Source: a virus | DNA: 37,525 bases | Virus record (IMG/VR): IMGVR_UViG_3300025030_000270 | Location: 1-37,525 of that record | Reading direction: 5' to 3' (one strand) | Part shown: piece after piece, positions 2,815-13,587 of the stretch | How the letters are laid out: each line of letters opens with the position of its first letter | Numbering within the stretch: position 1 is the first letter of the stretch | The notes under the pieces: model-generated | What the model saw: only the letters and a program-made list of their open reading frames with translations | What the model was told of the DNA's origin: nothing | Databases searched by the model: none | Made by a program: the position numbers and the translations under genes

Positions 2815-2949
2815 GTTGTCCGTTAGATTGCAAGCCTAACGGACAACTCTAACGGACAGAGCAAAGACTAACGGACAAATTGTAATTAACTGAATTGAAG
2901 AGGGTTTTTCAAATGGACGGATGGCTGAGCATAAAAGACCTAACGGACA
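2815..2949. promoter_or_regulatory. CTAACGGACA operator array
   Basis: A 10-bp motif CTAACGGACA occurs four times direct, at 2836-2845, 2849-2858, 2868-2877 and 2940-2949. One inverted copy is extended to GTTGTCCGTTAG at 2815-2826, which forms a 12-bp inverted repeat with 2836-2847. The last copy lies inside the transposase gene, encoding part of Asp-Leu-Thr-Asp. Such an array between an HTH gene and the transposase is probably an operator, or the counterpart of the Mu internal enhancer bound by the MuA N-terminal domain. Confidence 0.7.
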
Positions 2950-5171
2950 TCTTTTCCTCAAAAGAAGACTCCATTTTGAAGTCCATTCAGCGCGGGAAAA
3001 AGTTCACCAAAACCCGCCAAATTGACGGGCAGGGGAAGGGTCGTGGCGGCCAAATCTGGCAGGTCCACATCACCGATCCGGCCATCCCGGCGGAGCACCG
3101 CGCGGCCTTCCTGCACGCGCTGGAAGTACCGGCAAATGATGCCGCAAACCTCACTTGGGTCAAGCCGGAAAGTCTGCCCGCCATCGTCACCCAGGGCCAG
3201 CTCCCGGCCCTCACCGAGCTCAAGAAGTACCAGGTCCAGACCATGGACGCCCGCATCTACTTCATGCGCATCATCGAGCGTGCGGGCCGGGCCGGCATCG
3301 GCGTCAACAAGGCGATCGAGACCATCGTGGGCCAAGCCCAGGACGGCACTCTCCCCGAGGACGCGGCCCGCATGATACCGCTGGCCAACGCCCGCGCCGG
3401 TGCGGAGCGCACCCTCTCCTCAAACGGCATGATGAAATGGTGGAGCGCCTGGCAGAAGTCCGGCCACAACCCCGTGGCCCTCGCCCCCAAGGATACCGAG
3501 AAGCTGCCGCAGAAGGTGCTCACGGAGTGGGTGCGCGACTATGACGGCAAGGCCAAGGCGCTCATGCTCGCCCCCGGCGTCCCCGCTTGGCTGCCGTACT
3601 TCCTGGACGAATACCGGCAGCCGCAAAAGCCCTCCATGGCCCTGGCCTGCCGCAGGCTCAAGCGCCGCCTCCCGGCCGGCTGCCCGGTCCCGTCCTACGA
3701 CCAGATCGACAGGATCTGCAAGAAGATCCCTGCGATCTACCTGGAGAAAGGCCGCCTGACCGGCGCTGAATACAAGGCGATCCAGGGCTACGCCGAGCGC
3801 GACGCCTCCCATTTTGAGCCGATGACCTTATGCCAGATCGACGGCCACTCCTTCAAGGCCTACACGGCGCACCCGACCACCGGCGCGCACTTTCACCCCG
3901 AGGTATGCGGCGTCATCTGCCTCACCACCAAGGCCATAGTCGGCTGGTCCGCAGGGCTCGCCGAGAGCTGGCGCACGGTGGCCGACGCCTTCCGGCACGC
4001 CTGCACGGTGAACGATAAAAAGCCCTGGGGCGGCGTGATAGCGATCCTGGAGGCAGACCGGGGCGCCGGCAACATGGCCAAGGTGAACAGCGATGAGTTT
4101 TTCGGGATCTTCTCCCGGGTCGGCACCACCTTCGTCCCCCCGGAGCGCGGCGGCAACCCCCAGGGGCACGGTGGCGTAGAGCGCAGCAACCAGTCGGTCT
4201 GGATCCGCGCAGCCAAGGACTTGCCGACCTACACCGGCAAGGACATGGACCGGGTGGTAAGGAAGAAGATCTACACCCGGCTGGAGCGCGACCTAAAGAA
4301 GGTGCAGCGCGAGGGGCGGCTGGGACTGGTGGAAAAGACCTCCGAGCTGTTGCTCTCCTGGAAGGAGTTTCTGGATTTTCTGGAGCACTGGGTGATCGAC
4401 TACAACAACACCCCGCACCGCGCGCTTGACAAGATAACGGCACCTCCGCCGGGAGAGCCCGACGGCAAGCCGGTGCGCCGTCACATGACCCCCTTCGAAG
4501 CATACGCCCGGGCTGTGGCCGACGGCTGGAAGCCAGTGGTCTACGAGGACGACATGCTGGGGCACCTCATGATGCCGCACGAGCGGATCAAGGTGGCGCG
4601 GGAGAAATTCACCCTGTTCGGCAACTCCTACCATGCTTACGAGCTCTGTCAGCGGCACGGTGAAGAAATGATCGCCGCATATGACATCCACGACGCATCG
4701 AAGGTCTGGGTGCTCGACCTGGAAGAGCGCCTGGTATGCATGGCCAAGTGGAACGGCAGCAAGAGGGACGCACAGCCGGTTTCGAAGGTTCAAAAGGCGA
4801 TCACGGACCGCCAAGCGCGCCGCGTAAAGAACAAGGAACGCGATCTTGAGTTGATCCGCGCCGAGGCGAATCCTCCCATCGAGGTGGCCGTGCAGCGCGA
4901 GCTTCCGCAGGATGTCATCGACTTCGAACAGAGACAGAAAGAGAGGCAGGCGGAGAGGGTGCAGGCCAGAGCCGGCAAGCGCTTCTTCGCCGACTGCCAC
5001 GAGCTCGCCGAGGACATCCTGCAGCGCCAAAAGGCTCAGCAGCCGGTAGGCGAATACGAGGCCAGTTGGATAGCCGATTACCAGAAATCAGCCCAGAGCG
5101 CGCGGCGCGTAGGGCTATACCTGACCGATCCGGACTGCGCCGGAAGGTTTCAGCAGGCGCAGGCCCAATAA
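2913..5171 (+). CDS. MuA-type DDE transposase
   Basis: The protein has 752 aa from ATG 2913 (GAAGAGG upstream); a TTG at 2895 in frame is less likely. Residues 1-60 are the winged-helix Mu DNA-binding domain (starting MDGWLSIKDL), followed by helical end-binding domains. The RNase H-like catalytic core carries Asp310 (in CQIDGHSF), Asp382 (in LEADRGAGN) and Glu423 (in GHGGVERSN), all three DDE residues. A basic C-terminal region follows, the part that in Mu contacts MuB and ClpX. The protein cuts the prophage ends and joins them to target DNA during integration and replicative transposition. Length is close to the roughly 660 aa of MuA, somewhat longer. Confidence 0.96.
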   Translation: MDGWLSIKDLTDIFSSKEDSILKSIQRGKKFTKTRQIDGQGKGRGGQIWQVHITDPAIPAEHRAAFLHALEVPANDAANLTWVKPESLPAIVTQGQLPALTELKKYQVQTMDARIYFMRIIERAGRAGIGVNKAIETIVGQAQDGTLPEDAARMIPLANARAGAERTLSSNGMMKWWSAWQKSGHNPVALAPKDTEKLPQKVLTEWVRDYDGKAKALMLAPGVPAWLPYFLDEYRQPQKPSMALACRRLKRRLPAGCPVPSYDQIDRICKKIPAIYLEKGRLTGAEYKAIQGYAERDASHFEPMTLCQIDGHSFKAYTAHPTTGAHFHPEVCGVICLTTKAIVGWSAGLAESWRTVADAFRHACTVNDKKPWGGVIAILEADRGAGNMAKVNSDEFFGIFSRVGTTFVPPERGGNPQGHGGVERSNQSVWIRAAKDLPTYTGKDMDRVVRKKIYTRLERDLKKVQREGRLGLVEKTSELLLSWKEFLDFLEHWVIDYNNTPHRALDKITAPPPGEPDGKPVRRHMTPFEAYARAVADGWKPVVYEDDMLGHLMMPHERIKVAREKFTLFGNSYHAYELCQRHGEEMIAAYDIHDASKVWVLDLEERLVCMAKWNGSKRDAQPVSKVQKAITDRQARRVKNKERDLELIRAEANPPIEVAVQRELPQDVIDFEQRQKERQAERVQARAGKRFFADCHELAEDILQRQKAQQPVGEYEASWIADYQKSAQSARRVGLYLTDPDCAGRFQQAQAQ

Positions 5172-5255: not shown

Positions 5256-5996
5256 ATGATACACAAAACGGCAATGACAAAGGACATGAGGCGCTTCATC
5301 CAGTCCATCGACGACCTGCTGAACCGCCCGAGCGGGACCGAAGGGCAGGGGCTCCTCTGGGGGCATCCCGGCCTCGGCAAGACCACGGCGGTAGCTTACG
5401 CCGTGAACCAGTACGACGGCATCTTTGTCCGCGCCCTGGGCTGCTGGACCGTCACCGCCATGCTCGGCGACCTCTGCCGCGAGCTGGGCGGCAAGCGCCT
5501 TTGCCGTCGCTCCGACATGGTCGAGTTCATTGTCGCCGAACTCTCCAAGCCCGGCACCGCGCCGCGCCCCATCTTCATCGACGAGGCCGACTACTGCTTC
5601 CGGAAGTTCGAGATGGTCGACAGCTTGCGCGACATCTATGACCTCTCCAAATGCCCCATCATCATGATCGGCATGGAGGATATCGCCCGCCAGATCAAGA
5701 CCAACGAGCGCGTGGCCAGGCGCATCACCCAGTGGGTCGAGTTCAAGGGGCTCGACCTGTCCGACACGGACCTGGTAGCCGCCGAATGCTGCGAGGTGAA
5801 GCTCTCCAGCGACCTGCTGGAGTACCTGCACAAGGAGACCGGGGCCAACATCGGCCGCATCATCATCGGCCTCACCCGCATCGAGAAGTTCGCCAAGGCC
5901 AACGGCCTCGCCACCATCACCGGCGCGGAGTGGGGCAGCCAGCCGCTGTACTTCGATCAGCCCACCTTTGCCGGCAAAGGCCGGCGCAACTCATGA
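5256..5996 (+). CDS. MuB-type AAA+ ATPase, target-DNA activator
   Basis: This 246-aa AAA+ protein has Walker A GHPGLGKTT (residues 36-44), Walker B IFIDEAD (106-112) and a sensor-1-like segment IIMIGMED. It directly follows the transposase gene. In Mu the B protein binds DNA and ATP, selects target sites and stimulates MuA; the same role is expected here. It lacks the long N-terminal HTH extension of Mu B (312 aa), so it is a short form as seen in other transposable phages. Start ATG 5256 is preceded by AAGGGGG. It overlaps the next gene by four bases, indicating coupled translation. Confidence 0.93.
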   Translation: MIHKTAMTKDMRRFIQSIDDLLNRPSGTEGQGLLWGHPGLGKTTAVAYAVNQYDGIFVRALGCWTVTAMLGDLCRELGGKRLCRRSDMVEFIVAELSKPGTAPRPIFIDEADYCFRKFEMVDSLRDIYDLSKCPIIMIGMEDIARQIKTNERVARRITQWVEFKGLDLSDTDLVAAECCEVKLSSDLLEYLHKETGANIGRIIIGLTRIEKFAKANGLATITGAEWGSQPLYFDQPTFAGKGRRNS

Positions 5997-7184: not shown

Positions 7185-7805
7185 ATGGAAAACGCAGCAA
7201 ACGTCATACCCGAAGGGTACATGCAGGACGCGCAGGGAAGGCTGGTTCCGAACGAGCTGGTCAAGGAAATCGACAAGCTGCGCGACCAGACCGTGCGCCG
7301 GATCGTCGGGGTGGCCCTCCTGACCGCCGAGGCCGTCAAGAAGTTCAAGGTGATGGCGGACGCCGACATCGCGGCCTTCACCGGCATCTCGGCCGAGGAC
7401 TACGGCACCGCCCTGGGCGGAGTCAAAGGGAACATCACCCTGCGGTCGTTCGACGGCAAATACAAGGTCTGCCGGGACATCGGCGAGAACCTGGTCTTCG
7501 ACGAGCGGCTCCAGGTCGCCAAGGCCCTGATCGACGAGTGCATCAACAGCTGGGCCGAGGGCTCGGACGCCAAGATCCGCACGCTCATCCTGGACTCCTT
7601 CCAGGTCGACAAGCAGGGCCGCGTGAACACCAAGCGCATCCTGAGCCTCCGCAAGCTCAACATCGACGACCCCACCTGGAAGCGCGCCATGGACGCGATC
7701 GGCGAGAGCATCCAGGTCGCCGGGTCGAAGGCCTACATCCGCATCTACGAGCGCCAGGCCGACGACAGCTACAAGCTGATCAACGTCGACCTCGCGTCGC
7801 TGTAG
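7185..7805 (+). CDS. DUF3164 family protein
   Basis: The product has 206 aa from ATG 7185 behind AAAGGAGC. The sequence shows the features of DUF3164, a family common in early regions of Mu-like phages: an N-terminal YMQDAQGRLVP-type segment, a central block around the repeated FDGKYKV motif, and a C-terminal block with RILSLR and AIGESIQV. The molecular function of the family is not known. The position between the ATPase and GemA is usual for it. Confidence 0.9.
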   Translation: MENAANVIPEGYMQDAQGRLVPNELVKEIDKLRDQTVRRIVGVALLTAEAVKKFKVMADADIAAFTGISAEDYGTALGGVKGNITLRSFDGKYKVCRDIGENLVFDERLQVAKALIDECINSWAEGSDAKIRTLILDSFQVDKQGRVNTKRILSLRKLNIDDPTWKRAMDAIGESIQVAGSKAYIRIYERQADDSYKLINVDLASL

Positions 7806-8191: not shown

Positions 8192-8383
8192 ATGGGAAAG
8201 ATCAGGCAGCACCCGAAATACAACGTACTTTCCTGCCGCGCCAGCGATGCGGAGTGGGAAGAGATCGATGCTGTTATCGGCAACGGCAACAGGTCCGCCT
8301 TCCTCCTGGAAGCGGCACTGGAGAAGGTCCGGCGCGAGCGGCAGCGGAGGGTGGACCATGTTGTGTCGGAGCGAGCCCTGTAA
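8192..8383 (+). CDS. Ribbon-helix-helix-like small protein
   Basis: The product has 63 aa from ATG 8192 (GAGGT site two bases after the previous stop). The pattern of a short strand (YNVLSCRAS), helix (DAEWEEIDAVI), a turn with GNRS, and a second helix (AFLLEAALEKVRRER) fits the ribbon-helix-helix fold of MetJ/Arc/CopG-type DNA-binding proteins. It could be a regulator within the early region. No partner toxin is evident next to it. Confidence 0.65.
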   Translation: MGKIRQHPKYNVLSCRASDAEWEEIDAVIGNGNRSAFLLEAALEKVRRERQRRVDHVVSERAL

Positions 8384-9055: not shown

Positions 9056-9304
9056 ATGTCGATAAGAGTTTGCCCTTGCGGACGCCGCCTGGTCCAGAAG
9101 CCGAGGGTAGGCGATAAGCCAGCGGAAACCGACAAGCAATTTGCCGACCGTAGATACTGCAACGCGCAGTGCTCCGGTAAGTACCGCCCGCGCAAGCCGG
9201 CCGCCCGGGGTTTTGGCTTCGAGGTTTCCCATGCGAGGAAAAACAGCGTAGGCCCTGGCTTCAGGGAATTCATTGACGGCGCGGTTAGGCCGGTGCCGAG
9301 GTAA
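9056..9304 (+). CDS. Small zinc-knuckle hypothetical protein
   Basis: The product has 82 aa from ATG 9056 behind an excellent GAAGGAGGTG site. The N-terminal half carries CPCGRRL and, about 30 residues on, YCNAQC: two cysteine pairs spaced as in a treble-clef or zinc-ribbon knuckle. The rest is basic. Its TAA stop lies inside the first arm of an attC-like element (9299-9344), as is usual for genes in integron cassettes. Function is unknown. Confidence 0.7.
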   Translation: MSIRVCPCGRRLVQKPRVGDKPAETDKQFADRRYCNAQCSGKYRPRKPAARGFGFEVSHARKNSVGPGFREFIDGAVRPVPR

Positions 9305-10087: not shown

Positions 10088-10942
10088 ATGGATATGAAGG
10101 CGTGGGAACCGATTGATGAACTCCAGGTTCAAGCCCTGGACAGCGACTGCAACTACTTGAAGCCGGTGGAGGATCTTGAACCCGGCGAAAGTCAGCGGTA
10201 CGGGTGCACCGTTATCGGGTTCTGTCTGGACGATCCCGAAGGGTGCCGCAGCATCATGGATATCACGACCGGCGAAGGCCGCGAGGCCGATGAGGCACTG
10301 GCTGCTCTCGTTGTCAGGTCTATGCGCGTCGCAGCTGGAATGCAGGCGGGAGGTTGCCCTTACTGTTTCGGCAACGTTCTTTACTGCGACCGTCACGACC
10401 AGGCAAAGGGTGTGGCGCACTGCGATGATTGCGGCGCGGAACTCACGATGGAACAGTACCGCGAGGGGCTGCGCTGGGCAGAGTGCCACAAGTCGGATAC
10501 TCCGGACAGGGTTCTTTTCTACGAACAGGACTTCTATGTCCTGTCGAATTTCTCGGCTTTTCGGCTGGCATGGAAGGGCCTGACTTACGATACCTCGGAG
10601 GCGGCCTACCATTCCGAGAAGTTCCCCGGCAACTTCAGCCTGCAGATGAAAATCAGAGATGCTATTTCAGCCCACGAAGCTTTTAAAGTTGCTGAAGCGC
10701 ATAAGGCTGAACGCCGCCCAGACTGGGATGATGTAAAGGTGGGCATCATGCGGGACATCCTCCGCGCAAAGGCAAGCCGGCACGAATACGTGAAGCGGAA
10801 GCTGTTGGCGACTGGTGACCGTGAACTGGTAGAGGACTCCTGGCGTGATGATTTCTGGGGGTGGGGCGAAGATCGGGATGGGGTAAACATGCTTGGCAGG
10901 CTCTGGATGGAGATTCGGGCCGAGCTGCGGGCGACCGCCTAA
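10088..10942 (+). CDS. Zinc-ribbon protein with C-terminal NADAR (YbiA-like) domain
   Basis: The product has 284 aa from ATG 10088 behind AAGGAGGAG. Residues about 85-120 hold two Cys pairs (Cys90-x2-Cys93 and Cys112-x2-Cys115), a zinc-ribbon pattern. Residues about 140-280 are a NADAR/DUF1768 domain: YVLSNFSAF, a TSEAAYHSEKF helix, WDDVKVGIMRDILRAK, LLATGDRELVEDS, FWGWGEDRDG and NMLGRLWMEIR match its conserved blocks. NADAR proteins are N-glycosidases acting on riboflavin-pathway amines or on ADP-ribosylated guanine in nucleic acids. The N-terminal part is an addition to the usual single domain. It may counter an ADP-ribosyl or NAD-based host defence, which is inference. Module ends are TTAGGC (10068) and the complementary GCCTAAC (10937). 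Confidence 0.88.
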   Translation: MDMKAWEPIDELQVQALDSDCNYLKPVEDLEPGESQRYGCTVIGFCLDDPEGCRSIMDITTGEGREADEALAALVVRSMRVAAGMQAGGCPYCFGNVLYCDRHDQAKGVAHCDDCGAELTMEQYREGLRWAECHKSDTPDRVLFYEQDFYVLSNFSAFRLAWKGLTYDTSEAAYHSEKFPGNFSLQMKIRDAISAHEAFKVAEAHKAERRPDWDDVKVGIMRDILRAKASRHEYVKRKLLATGDRELVEDSWRDDFWGWGEDRDGVNMLGRLWMEIRAELRATA

Positions 10943-10983
10943 CTACTTATTCACCTAGCCCCTGGCGGCATATCCGCCGAGGG
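10937..10983 (+). repeat. attC-like element 2 (right arm missing)
   Basis: GCCTAAC (10937-10943) contains the TAA stop of the NADAR gene and is the exact complement of GTTAGGC at the start of that module. A strong hairpin follows, CCCTGGCGG paired with CCGCCGAGGG (one bulged G, loop CATAT, ending near 10983). No GTTRRRY arm follows, so the element is incomplete or not an attC. The bases up to 11057 hold no gene. Confidence 0.35.
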
Positions 10984-11057
10984 CGATCAACCGCAAACCC
11001 GCGCCAATGCAGTAATCAGCCGGGATAATGAAAACGCAAAAGCCGCCAGGAGAAGAC

Positions 11058-11486
11058 ATGGCAACCCCAGCCCAGATAAAGAAGATCCACATCCTGAAGA
11101 GCGCGCTCAAGATCGACGAGGACACCTATCGGGCCATGCTAGGCGGCTTCGGTGTCAAGAGCTCGACCAGCCGCGCCTTCACCATCACCCTGGCCGACGA
11201 ACTCATCCAGGACCTGGTGGAAAAGGCGGTAGCCGCCGGAGTCTGGGAAAAGCGCAAGCCGGCCACGCGGGCGAAAGCCAAGCGCCAGCTTGCCGATGAC
11301 GACCAGTCGCGCAAGATCCGGAGCCTCTGGATCCAGCTGCACCAGGCTGAAAAGGTCAAGAACCCGAGCGAGGACGCCCTGGGCGCTTACGTGAAGCGCA
11401 TGACCCGGGTCGATAAGCTGCAGTGGCTCAGTGTAAAGCAGGCTTCAACGGTCATTGAAGCCCTGAAAAAATGGTTAGCGAGGTAG
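11058..11486 (+). CDS. gemA: GemA-like protein (Mu gp16 family, DUF1018)
   Basis: The product has 142 aa from ATG 11058 (CAGGAGAAG upstream). The N-terminal block (KKIHILKSALKIDEDTYRAM, then GGFGVKSSTS), the linker of Lys/Ala repeats and the C-terminal block (RSLWIQLHQAEKV, YVKRMTRVDKLQWL) are those of DUF1018. In Mu, GemA affects host DNA supercoiling and gene expression early in lytic growth. It is usually followed by mor; here an AT-rich gene and a CxxC gene intervene. Confidence 0.92.
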   Translation: MATPAQIKKIHILKSALKIDEDTYRAMLGGFGVKSSTSRAFTITLADELIQDLVEKAVAAGVWEKRKPATRAKAKRQLADDDQSRKIRSLWIQLHQAEKVKNPSEDALGAYVKRMTRVDKLQWLSVKQASTVIEALKKWLAR

Positions 11487-11488
11487 TC

Positions 11489-12397
11489 ATGAAACTCGGA
11501 TATAGCATGTTGCTTGGTGAGTACATAGAAGCCAAAGTTGTTGAATATGGGGATTGTACGCAGTTCCAGATTGTTTGTCCTTACTGCAAAGAACCTGTTT
11601 TTAAAGTCATAAGAGATGCTTCGCAAGAGCTTCATTATTTGGCCCATTATAATAAAAGTAAAGCATATATAGCCGAGTGTGATTTGCGACTAAGTGGAAT
11701 TACTAACGAGCATATTCGGCAAGCAGATTGGTTTTCCAGGGACCAGCGGATAAAATTCTTTCTTGGTGCGCTTAGGTCCATGTTCGAGGAAGCCCAAATT
11801 TCAAGCGAAGACCTAAGAAAGAACTTGAGTGCTTGTAAGGTATCTCAAAAGAGTAAAATATTAAAATTCATGAGAGAACTCAGCCACAGGCACGCAAAGG
11901 ATATTTTTAAACAAAATATTGATTTAGCAAAAGAATCAATCGATTGTTGGATTGAAGAGTATAACGAATTTGCAGAAGTTCCTTTAAAAACAGGTTTCTC
12001 TATAGGGGTACAAAAACGGATTGCCATGGATTTTTGGGAGCACATTCTTAGCGCAAATGCGAGAGACAGTTTTGATTACCTCTATAACCATGCATATCAT
12101 AATGCTATAAATAGGATAAGTGCTTCTCAAAAGGCAAGAGAGCTTAAGCGATGGGAATATGATTTAGCTAACTACATGATTAAGTTGAGACAAGCCAGCT
12201 TGAACCAAGGGTATTCAATGATGGATGAAATGAAAGAATACCCCGTAGTTCGTGATAATGGGAGGAAGAGTTTACTCCATATAATGAATGCAGAAATAAC
12301 ACATGAGATGATTGGGCTCTTAACTACGCTGCCATATTTAGAATGGTTAAAGAAGGGGAGTACAGACAAAAAAATGGAGGCCGCGAACCGGTTATGA
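11489..12397 (+). CDS. AT-rich cargo gene with CoiA-like zinc-binding N-terminus
   Basis: The product has 302 aa from ATG 11489, two bases after the gemA stop. Base and codon use is clearly AT-rich (many AAA, ATA, TTT, AAT codons) against GC-rich neighbours. Cys30-x2-Cys33 (IVCPYCKEPVFK), His49 and His53 (ELHYLAHYN) and Cys64 recall the zinc-binding N-terminal domain of competence protein CoiA and related proteins (CPxC then HFAH). The remaining roughly 230 residues are helical, charged, and match nothing I know; a nuclease core is not visible. It overlaps the next gene by four bases, so it is translated as part of the operon. It was probably acquired recently. A defence or anti-competitor role is only a guess. 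Confidence 0.72.
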   Translation: MKLGYSMLLGEYIEAKVVEYGDCTQFQIVCPYCKEPVFKVIRDASQELHYLAHYNKSKAYIAECDLRLSGITNEHIRQADWFSRDQRIKFFLGALRSMFEEAQISSEDLRKNLSACKVSQKSKILKFMRELSHRHAKDIFKQNIDLAKESIDCWIEEYNEFAEVPLKTGFSIGVQKRIAMDFWEHILSANARDSFDYLYNHAYHNAINRISASQKARELKRWEYDLANYMIKLRQASLNQGYSMMDEMKEYPVVRDNGRKSLLHIMNAEITHEMIGLLTTLPYLEWLKKGSTDKKMEAANRL

Positions 12398-13170
12398 ACC
12401 TGCACTGCCCCTGCTGCCACGCCCAATACAGCATCGAAGCCCTCACCCAGGACGCCGCCGCCCGCGAGCTGCTCGGCATGCGCGGCACCATGCCGCCCAG
12501 CCTGCTCAGCTACCTCACCCTGTTCCGCTCCGAGAAGCGCGCCCTCTCATTCGACCGCGCCCTCAAGCTCGCCAAGGAGGCCATGCAACTGTCCGCCAAT
12601 ATCGTACAGTTGGACGCCGCCATGGCCGAGACGGTCGAGTCCATGCGAGCCAAGAAAGAGCAGGGCCTGGCCAAGCCCCTCAAGAACCACAATTACCTGC
12701 TGCGCGTCCTGGAGAACACCCCCGAGAGCGGCACCACGGCTCTCGCCCCCAGGCAGAAACAGACTCCCGGCACCAGCAAGCGCGCCCAAAGCTTCGAGGC
12801 GCTGGAGACCTGGGCCGGTGGCGAGTGGCTGCGCACCGCCATCTCCTCCGGGCTGCAGGCCCTGGTCGCGCTCTCCCTGGACAACACGCCCGCATCCGAC
12901 ACCATCTGCCGCACCGCGGACATCTGGTATCACGTGCTGACCAAGCACACTGCCCTGGACATAGAGGAAATTGACTCCCCCAGGGTGGCGCTGGCCTTTT
13001 CCGCCCTGCTCACCAAGACCGCAGGCCGCTGGCCCGACCCCAAAACCCTGAAAGACCTGCTGCCCAAGCGCCCGCAACGCCAGGCGCTGGAGCAGGTGGA
13101 AACCGAGGAGGCCAGGGAACGGGGCAAGCAGGCCGCCCGCGCCCTCACCGCACTTGTAGGAGGTAAATGA
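12394..13170 (+). CDS. CxxC-motif hypothetical protein upstream of mor
   Basis: The product has 258 aa from ATG 12394, which overlaps the stop of the cargo gene. The nearest GGAGG site is 14 bases away, so coupling or a moved site is possible. The N-terminus MNLHCPCCHAQYS holds a CxxC pair typical of a zinc knuckle. The rest is helical and Ala/Leu-rich, with a Gln/Thr/Pro-rich linker (residues 118-130). I do not recognise the family; the place in the early operon before mor suggests a DNA-metabolism or regulatory role. Codon use is GC-rich like the phage core. Confidence 0.78.
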   Translation: MNLHCPCCHAQYSIEALTQDAAARELLGMRGTMPPSLLSYLTLFRSEKRALSFDRALKLAKEAMQLSANIVQLDAAMAETVESMRAKKEQGLAKPLKNHNYLLRVLENTPESGTTALAPRQKQTPGTSKRAQSFEALETWAGGEWLRTAISSGLQALVALSLDNTPASDTICRTADIWYHVLTKHTALDIEEIDSPRVALAFSALLTKTAGRWPDPKTLKDLLPKRPQRQALEQVETEEARERGKQAARALTALVGGK

Positions 13171-13545: not shown

Positions 13546-13557
13546 GTGGATTTAAAA

Positions 13558-13587
13558 CCACACTCCCCCCACGGAGTGTGGTTTTTT
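13558..13587 (+). terminator. Intrinsic terminator after mor
   Basis: CCACACTCC (13558-13566) pairs perfectly with GGAGTGTGG (13573-13581), loop CCCCAC, followed by T6 (13582-13587). It is a textbook rho-independent terminator, ending the early transcript. Confidence 0.88.

What the first reader, a model, noticed from the sequence alone, without database searches (positions are those of the whole stretch)
11489..12397. AT-rich foreign gene with a CoiA-like zinc N-terminus between gemA and mor
Base composition changes sharply at both ends, the gene is fused into the operon by a 2-bp gap and a 4-bp overlap, and the N-terminus has the CxxC...HxxxH pattern of CoiA relatives. The remaining 230 residues match nothing I know. 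Location in the early operon of a prophage is a frequent place for accessory defence genes.
Basis: partly seen in the sequence, partly recalled or inferred. Interest (0 to 1): 0.72.

Follow-up and report, generated by a model that had tools for sequence, protein, structure and literature searches.

The report
Zinc-domain cargo gene in Mu-like phage
A foreign gene sits neatly in the early operon of a Mu-like phage; it joins a CoiA-type zinc domain to a helical part of unknown fold and belongs to a rare travelling family that probably interferes with rival mobile DNA, though its function is untested.

Summary
Window 11489-12397 is a 302-aa gene at 38% GC in a 59% GC Mu-like phage. It has a 2-bp gap to gemA and a 4-bp overlap with the next gene, a zinc-ribbon gene that precedes mor. 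The N-terminus is a real CoiA_N homologue: profile-profile probability 96%, against at most 5.5% in 100 column shuffles. The C-terminus is modelled all-helical, without CoiA's nuclease and without a known fold.

Close relatives lack the gene; the same slot holds a different small gene in each. A second, unrelated Mu-like phage carries a homologue between gam and its next gene. A sister contig lacks exactly that ORF (860 bp), so there the gene entered as a bare ORF at a stop/start overlap. Elsewhere the family is very rare and patchy: a lone gene beside tyrosine recombinases, a Tn3 transposon or toxin-antitoxin genes.

Most likely it is a single-gene interference or exclusion factor using the zinc domain to bind nucleic acid. 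Its place in the repressed early operon, with no promoter-like site of its own, points to expression during infection rather than in the lysogen. Counter-defence is the main rival. No function is shown. It is a new variant of a known kind: accessory phage cargo with a CoiA_N domain.

The parts
11489..12397 (+). Gene X: 302 aa, CoiA_N-type zinc domain plus helical domain; AT-rich accessory gene
11489..11689 (+). N-terminal domain (residues 1-67), CoiA_N homologue; invariant C30 (11576), C33 (11585), H53 (11645), C64 (11678)
   Evidence: hhalign to CoiA_N alignment, prob 95.8, shuffles max 5.5; alignments
11705..12391 (+). C-terminal all-helical domain (residues 73-301), no known fold found; no conserved catalytic set
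   Evidence: AF2 model pLDDT 86, pTM 0.82; Foldseek and VIA; conservation
11028..11486 (+). gemA; its 3' end (GAGAGATAG / GCGAGGTAG) also looks like the Shine-Dalgarno of whatever gene follows
   Evidence: PF06252 7.5e-29; junction sequences
12394..13170 (+). Next core gene: N-terminal zinc-ribbon-like protein, phrog_2161 and phrog_8159 (called ZnR in the report)
   Evidence: conserved in L019-L024
13167..13511 (+). mor, middle transcription activator
   Evidence: PF08765 4.4e-20
13554..13585 (+). Strong intrinsic-terminator-like site (13 pairs) after mor: probable end of early operon
2895..5171 (+). Mu-type transposase (MuA-like)
   Evidence: PF09299 1.9e-15
5256..5996 (+). MuB/TniB-like AAA ATPase
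   Evidence: PF13401, PF05621
10088..10942 (+). NADAR-domain protein, a second accessory gene of the early region, absent from relatives searched
   Evidence: PF08719 5.7e-26; no tblastn match in L019-L112

Best explanation
Shown: gene X is a horizontally acquired accessory gene dropped as a bare ORF into a translationally coupled slot of a Mu-like phage's early operon. It encodes a CoiA_N-type zinc domain joined to a helical domain with no known fold. Inferred: it is made soon after infection or induction, by read-through from the early promoter and by coupling to gemA, and acts as a single-protein interference (exclusion) factor. On this reading the zinc domain, which carries nearly all invariant residues, binds nucleic acid of an incoming or competing element, and the helical domain blocks a step of it by binding rather than by cutting. 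In bacteria the same gene, standing alone beside recombinases and toxin-antitoxin genes, would serve as a small anti-phage or anti-element gene.
For: Foreign composition with sharp ends. The slot holds a different small ORF, with the same junction geometry, in each close relative, and X is absent from all 94 loci L019-L112. A homologue sits in a second Mu-like early operon between gam and its next gene; sister contigs lack exactly the 860-bp ORF. N-terminus is CoiA_N, and an X-profile relative, L128, passes Pfam's CoiA_N cut-off at 35.0 against 26.3 bits. Invariant residues concentrate in residues 4-95. The family is rare and patchy: 1 further genome of 397 Pseudomonadota, none of about 590 others besides the seeds. 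Bacterial copies are lone genes near tyrosine recombinases and a Tn3 transposon or near toxin-antitoxin genes. A CoiA-domain protein is among 21 experimentally found E. coli anti-phage systems (PMC9519451). The early plasticity regions of Pseudomonas Mu-like phages carry anti-CRISPR and other accessory genes, often AT-rich (PMC4378225). A related Mu-like phage expresses its early operon, with gemA and mor, only after repression is lifted (PMC9936078).
Against: No match to any PADLOC defence model. No catalytic residues and no fold match, so the effector step is a guess. No promoter-like site precedes X on its strand, so it may be silent in the lysogen, which fits prophage-borne defence badly. 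Nucleic-acid binding by CoiA_N is assumed, not shown. Toxin-antitoxin neighbours are a weak indicator.
Confidence: 0.45

Rival explanations
1. Counter-defence: X is made early in the lytic cycle to protect the phage from a host defence system, for example by binding a nuclease or shielding phage DNA.
For: Position in the early operon without a promoter of its own; the same operon carries a NADAR gene, a domain that removes ADP-ribose from guanine and serves as the DarT1 antitoxin (PMC11543638, returned; the link is my own knowledge); anti-CRISPR genes sit in comparable slots of Pseudomonas Mu-like phages (PMC4378225).
Against: Homologues L007-L010, L002 and G357 are lone genes in bacterial or plasmid loci; no window phage gene was found beside the five of these that were tested, and a counter-defence gene has no obvious use there.
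Confidence: 0.27
2. DNA-processing helper: X aids transposition, repair or recombination of the phage genome, in the way CoiA aids uptake and recombination in competent streptococci.
For: CoiA_N domain; slot next to transposition-replication genes; the second copy follows gam, a DNA end-protection gene.
Against: Absent from close relatives that replicate the same way; no nuclease domain; homologues occur outside phages.
Confidence: 0.13
3. Host-takeover or growth-inhibitory protein expressed early in the lytic cycle.
For: Early operon of Mu-like phages carries such genes (own knowledge of Mu kil); toxin-antitoxin neighbours of bacterial copies.
Against: Bacterial copies stand alone with no conserved partner that could be an antitoxin.
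Confidence: 0.1
4. The gene is a recent neutral passenger with no function in this phage.
For: AT-rich and patchy; a degenerate copy with an in-frame stop exists in Methylorubrum extorquens AM1.
Against: Open reading frame intact with all motif residues conserved at 30-39% identity across bacterial groups; two placements in unrelated phages, both translationally coupled.
Confidence: 0.05

Closest known systems
CoiA / COG4469, PF25164 CoiA_N (plus PF06054 nuclease)
   Same: N-terminal domain starting at Met1 with CPxC...H...C zinc motif; profile-profile match 95.8%
   Different: CoiA has a PD-(D/E)XK nuclease after this domain (PMC1189080); here the rest is all-helical and does not match CoiA nuclease profiles
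CoiA-domain anti-phage system of Vassallo et al. 2022 (PMC9519451)
   Same: A CoiA domain in a defence protein found on mobile DNA
   Different: No PADLOC match to X; that protein's sequence was not compared here, and the text read does not say which system it is
Accessory genes in regions of genomic plasticity of Pseudomonas Mu-like phages (PMC4378225)
   Same: Foreign, low-GC genes in the left arm of Mu-like phages between conserved genes
   Different: Different gene family and slot; here the insertion is a bare ORF fused by stop/start overlaps into the operon
Morons of lambdoid phages
   Same: Extra gene between two adjacent core genes, foreign composition, absent in relatives
   Different: No promoter or terminator of its own; read as part of the early operon

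Membership tests
CoiA (COG4469) | N-terminal CoiA_N zinc domain | tested here: met
   Directly sub-threshold (12.1 against 26.3 bits), but hhalign of family against 14 CoiA_N proteins gives prob 95.8, score 44.2; 100 column shuffles max prob 5.5, score 17; relative L128 over the cut-off
CoiA (COG4469) | PD-(D/E)XK nuclease domain | tested here: not met
   Residues 62-301 modelled almost wholly helical at high confidence; no match to three CoiA-type nuclease profiles, though that test is weak because two of the three control pairs also fail; no E-x-K/Q motif conserved
CoiA (COG4469) | Role in competence and transformation | not testable with these tools
   Needs transformation assays
Known anti-phage defence systems (PADLOC-DB 2.0.0) | Match to a defence protein model | tested here: not met
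   0 families at E up to 10
Known solved folds (PDB) | Structural match of the whole protein or helical domain | tested here: inconclusive
   Best VIA Z 4.2, rmsd 5.3 over 92 residues; Foldseek best E 0.48
Mu-like phage accessory gene (plasticity-region gene) | Present in one phage and absent between the same core genes in relatives | tested here: met
   exact presence/absence pair for the homologue
Moron | Foreign base composition | tested here: met
   z about -4.9
Moron | Own promoter and terminator flanking the gene | tested here: not met
   No + strand promoter-like site in 10900-11489 and no terminator-like site between X and the next gene; a consensus scan only

The most novel reading that the evidence does not exclude
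X founds a new family of single-protein mobile-element interference factors in which a CoiA_N zinc domain recognises a nucleic-acid state and a new helical fold blocks the invader without cutting. The family moves between phages as bare ORFs that slot exactly into stop/start overlaps of operons.
Probability: 0.2. Interest if true: 0.7.

Novelty: new variant of a known kind. Interest (0 to 1): 0.42.

Why it matters
CoiA_N-type zinc domains occur on quite different second domains, but what they recognise is not known. This family isolates the domain on a small protein without an evident nuclease, so a simple binding and exclusion test could show what the domain does. The gemA-ZnR slot of these Mu-like phages holds a different small gene in each genome with the same geometry, and is therefore a place to look for further phage-phage and phage-host conflict genes. 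The exact presence/absence pair in the second phage shows that a foreign ORF can enter a translationally coupled operon without any flanking sequence.

Tried and rejected
Direct family scans (Pfam, PHROGs, PADLOC, NCBIfam) gave only sub-threshold hits; weak hits such as SAM_CEP-1_C and rve_3 were set aside as chance. A whole-protein phage search gave only chance matches, the E. coli genome search nothing, and the PDB sequence search nothing convincing. Whole-model Foldseek against PDB and BFVD and the VIA second look gave no trustworthy match; the N-domain PDB second look gave one row at Z 2.3. I tested whether X is mobilised by its own repeats: no direct repeats flank it in either phage. I tested whether the two phage copies are sisters: the tree is unresolved and the AU test does not reject it (p 0.106), so independent acquisition rests on location and backbone, not on the tree. 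I considered whether G357's copy is Tn3 cargo: the Tn3 terminal repeats (L123 7900-7956 and 15310-15366) lie just outside the conserved part of X, so X abuts the transposon rather than lying inside it. I considered the repeats beside the Gracilimonas copy as integron attC sites and did not find the expected core sites by eye. Literature searches for CoiA-like defence genes gave one relevant paper.

Full report
WHAT IS THERE. The window is a 37.5-kb virus record with a Mu-like plan: a Mu-type transposase at 2895-5171, a MuB/TniB-like ATPase at 5256-5996, DUF3164 at 7185-7805, then gemA, gene X, a zinc-ribbon gene and mor. Gene X is the ORF at 11489-12397 (302 aa). Its ATG lies 2 bp after the gemA stop, and its TGA overlaps the ATG of the next gene by 4 bp. 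The next gene is a conserved 258-aa zinc-ribbon gene (ZnR; phrog_2161/8159), not mor itself. GC is 0.383 against 0.594 +/- 0.043 in the rest of the window, and GC3 is 0.38 against 0.79-0.87 in the neighbours. No promoter-like site precedes X on its strand, and a strong terminator-like site follows mor. X is thus most simply read from the early operon.

THE PROTEIN. X has no family match over a curated cut-off. Homologues were found in the Flagellatimonas centrodinii plasmid (E 8e-30), a second Mu-like viral contig, and four bacterial genomes: MAG DX4.bin27, Gracilimonas mengyeensis, a Geobacter MAG and Tistlia consotensis, at 34-39% identity over the full length. A further one lies in an unnamed Pseudomonadota genome, G357. 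A shorter cyanobacterial branch shares the N-terminus. Across eight near relatives, positions conserved in at least seven cluster in residues 4-95, including C30, C33, H53 and C64. The C-terminal part keeps only scattered, mostly structural positions.

The N-terminal domain is a CoiA_N homologue. hhalign of the family against 14 CoiA_N proteins taken from Bacteroidota-like genomes gives probability 95.8 and score 44.2, while 100 column-shuffled controls reach at most 5.5 and 17.0. A protein found with the X profile (L128) passes Pfam's CoiA_N cut-off. The N-domain model (pLDDT 70, pTM 0.54) has a phage 'Competence protein' as the top-ranked viral fold hit, at probability 0.94 but E only 0.15. 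The whole model (pLDDT 86, pTM 0.82) is almost all helix from residue 62 to 301. It has no convincing relative in PDB or BFVD and no match to CoiA-type nuclease profiles (a weak test). So X is not CoiA. It shares CoiA's first domain only.

HOW IT TRAVELS. In close relatives of the window phage (L019, L020, L021, L024) the order gemA-slot-ZnR-mor is kept, but each holds a different small ORF in the slot: 67, 51, 63 and 134 aa. Each starts within a few bases of the gemA stop, and its stop overlaps the ZnR start by 4 bp. The end of gemA (GAGAGATAG or similar) looks like a ready Shine-Dalgarno for any gene put there (inference). The 134-aa occupant of L024 is also AT-rich (0.40). X was found in none of the 94 loci L019-L112.

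In the second phage, which is nearest to RcapMu-like phages of alphaproteobacteria, the X homologue lies between gam and an 86-aa gene. Contigs L149 and L150, 80-85% identical on both sides, lack exactly 860 bp. There the gam stop overlaps the start of the 86-aa gene; with X present, gam overlaps X and X overlaps the 86-aa gene. The insertion is a bare ORF at a TGA shared by both junctions. No repeats flank X in either phage.

Outside phages the gene stands alone beside mobile or addiction genes: a tyrosine recombinase on the F. centrodinii plasmid, a homologous tyrosine recombinase and an abutting Tn3 transposon in G357, HEPN/MNT and PIN genes in L007, an addiction-gene array in L008, and a HigB-like gene in L009. 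In each of the four named bacterial loci the gene has lower GC than its surroundings. The family is very rare: 1 further genome among 397 Pseudomonadota, none besides the seeds in 296 and 295 genomes of two other phyla.

HOW IT MAY WORK. Shown: foreign origin, accessory status, operon embedding, domain relation. Inferred: early expression, nucleic-acid binding by the zinc domain, and a blocking rather than cutting action. The use by hosts, plasmids and phages alike favours interference with competing elements. A CoiA-domain protein has been found in an experimental screen for anti-phage genes (PMC9519451). The early operon of Mu-like phages is switched on only when repression is lifted (PMC9936078), so in this phage X would act during lytic growth. 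That also fits counter-defence, the main rival, and the same operon carries a NADAR gene that may be of that kind.

KNOWN OR NEW. Accessory genes in plasticity regions of Mu-like phages are known (PMC4378225), and CoiA_N domains are known. The pairing of this domain with this helical region, the family's spread and the bare-ORF presence/absence pair were not found in the libraries or papers searched. I rate it a new variant of a known kind, with interest held down by the lack of any functional test.

Noticed in passing
window 10088-10942: NADAR-domain protein (PF08719) with a zinc-finger-like segment near residues 78-121 that weakly resembles Lar-like restriction alleviation proteins; not found in any related locus searched, so probably another accessory, possibly counter-defence, gene.
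   Followed up: partly
L024:5600-6004, L019:5801-6004, L020:5849-6004, L021:5807-6001: Four different small ORFs occupy the gemA-ZnR slot with the same junction geometry as gene X; the L024 one is AT-rich and belongs to phrog_5671.
   Followed up: partly
L128, L129, L130: Cyanobacterial proteins of about 400-630 aa with an X-like or CoiA_N N-terminus and unknown C-terminal parts.
   Followed up: partly
L113, L115: CoiA_N domain followed by a region that by eye resembles a GIY-YIG/MUG113-type nuclease in Komarekiella; suggests the domain is a recognition module with exchangeable effectors.
   Followed up: no
L003:7998-8219: Degenerate copy of the X N-terminus with an in-frame stop in the Methylorubrum extorquens AM1 megaplasmid.
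   Followed up: partly
L008:7598-7641, 8278-8321, 9140-9183: Intergenic palindromic repeats (80-89% identical) separate X and the toxin-antitoxin genes in Gracilimonas; origin unknown.
   Followed up: partly
L002:12001-12996: The annotated F. centrodinii CDS (12370-12996) starts too late; the homologous frame begins at TTG 12001.
   Followed up: yes
L009:7214-7987: A DUF6904 gene lies 13 bp upstream of the X homologue in the Geobacter MAG, possibly one operon; not seen at the other copies.
   Followed up: no
window 11592-11606 and 11982-11996: Perfect 15-nt inverted repeat inside gene X, 375 nt apart.
   Followed up: no
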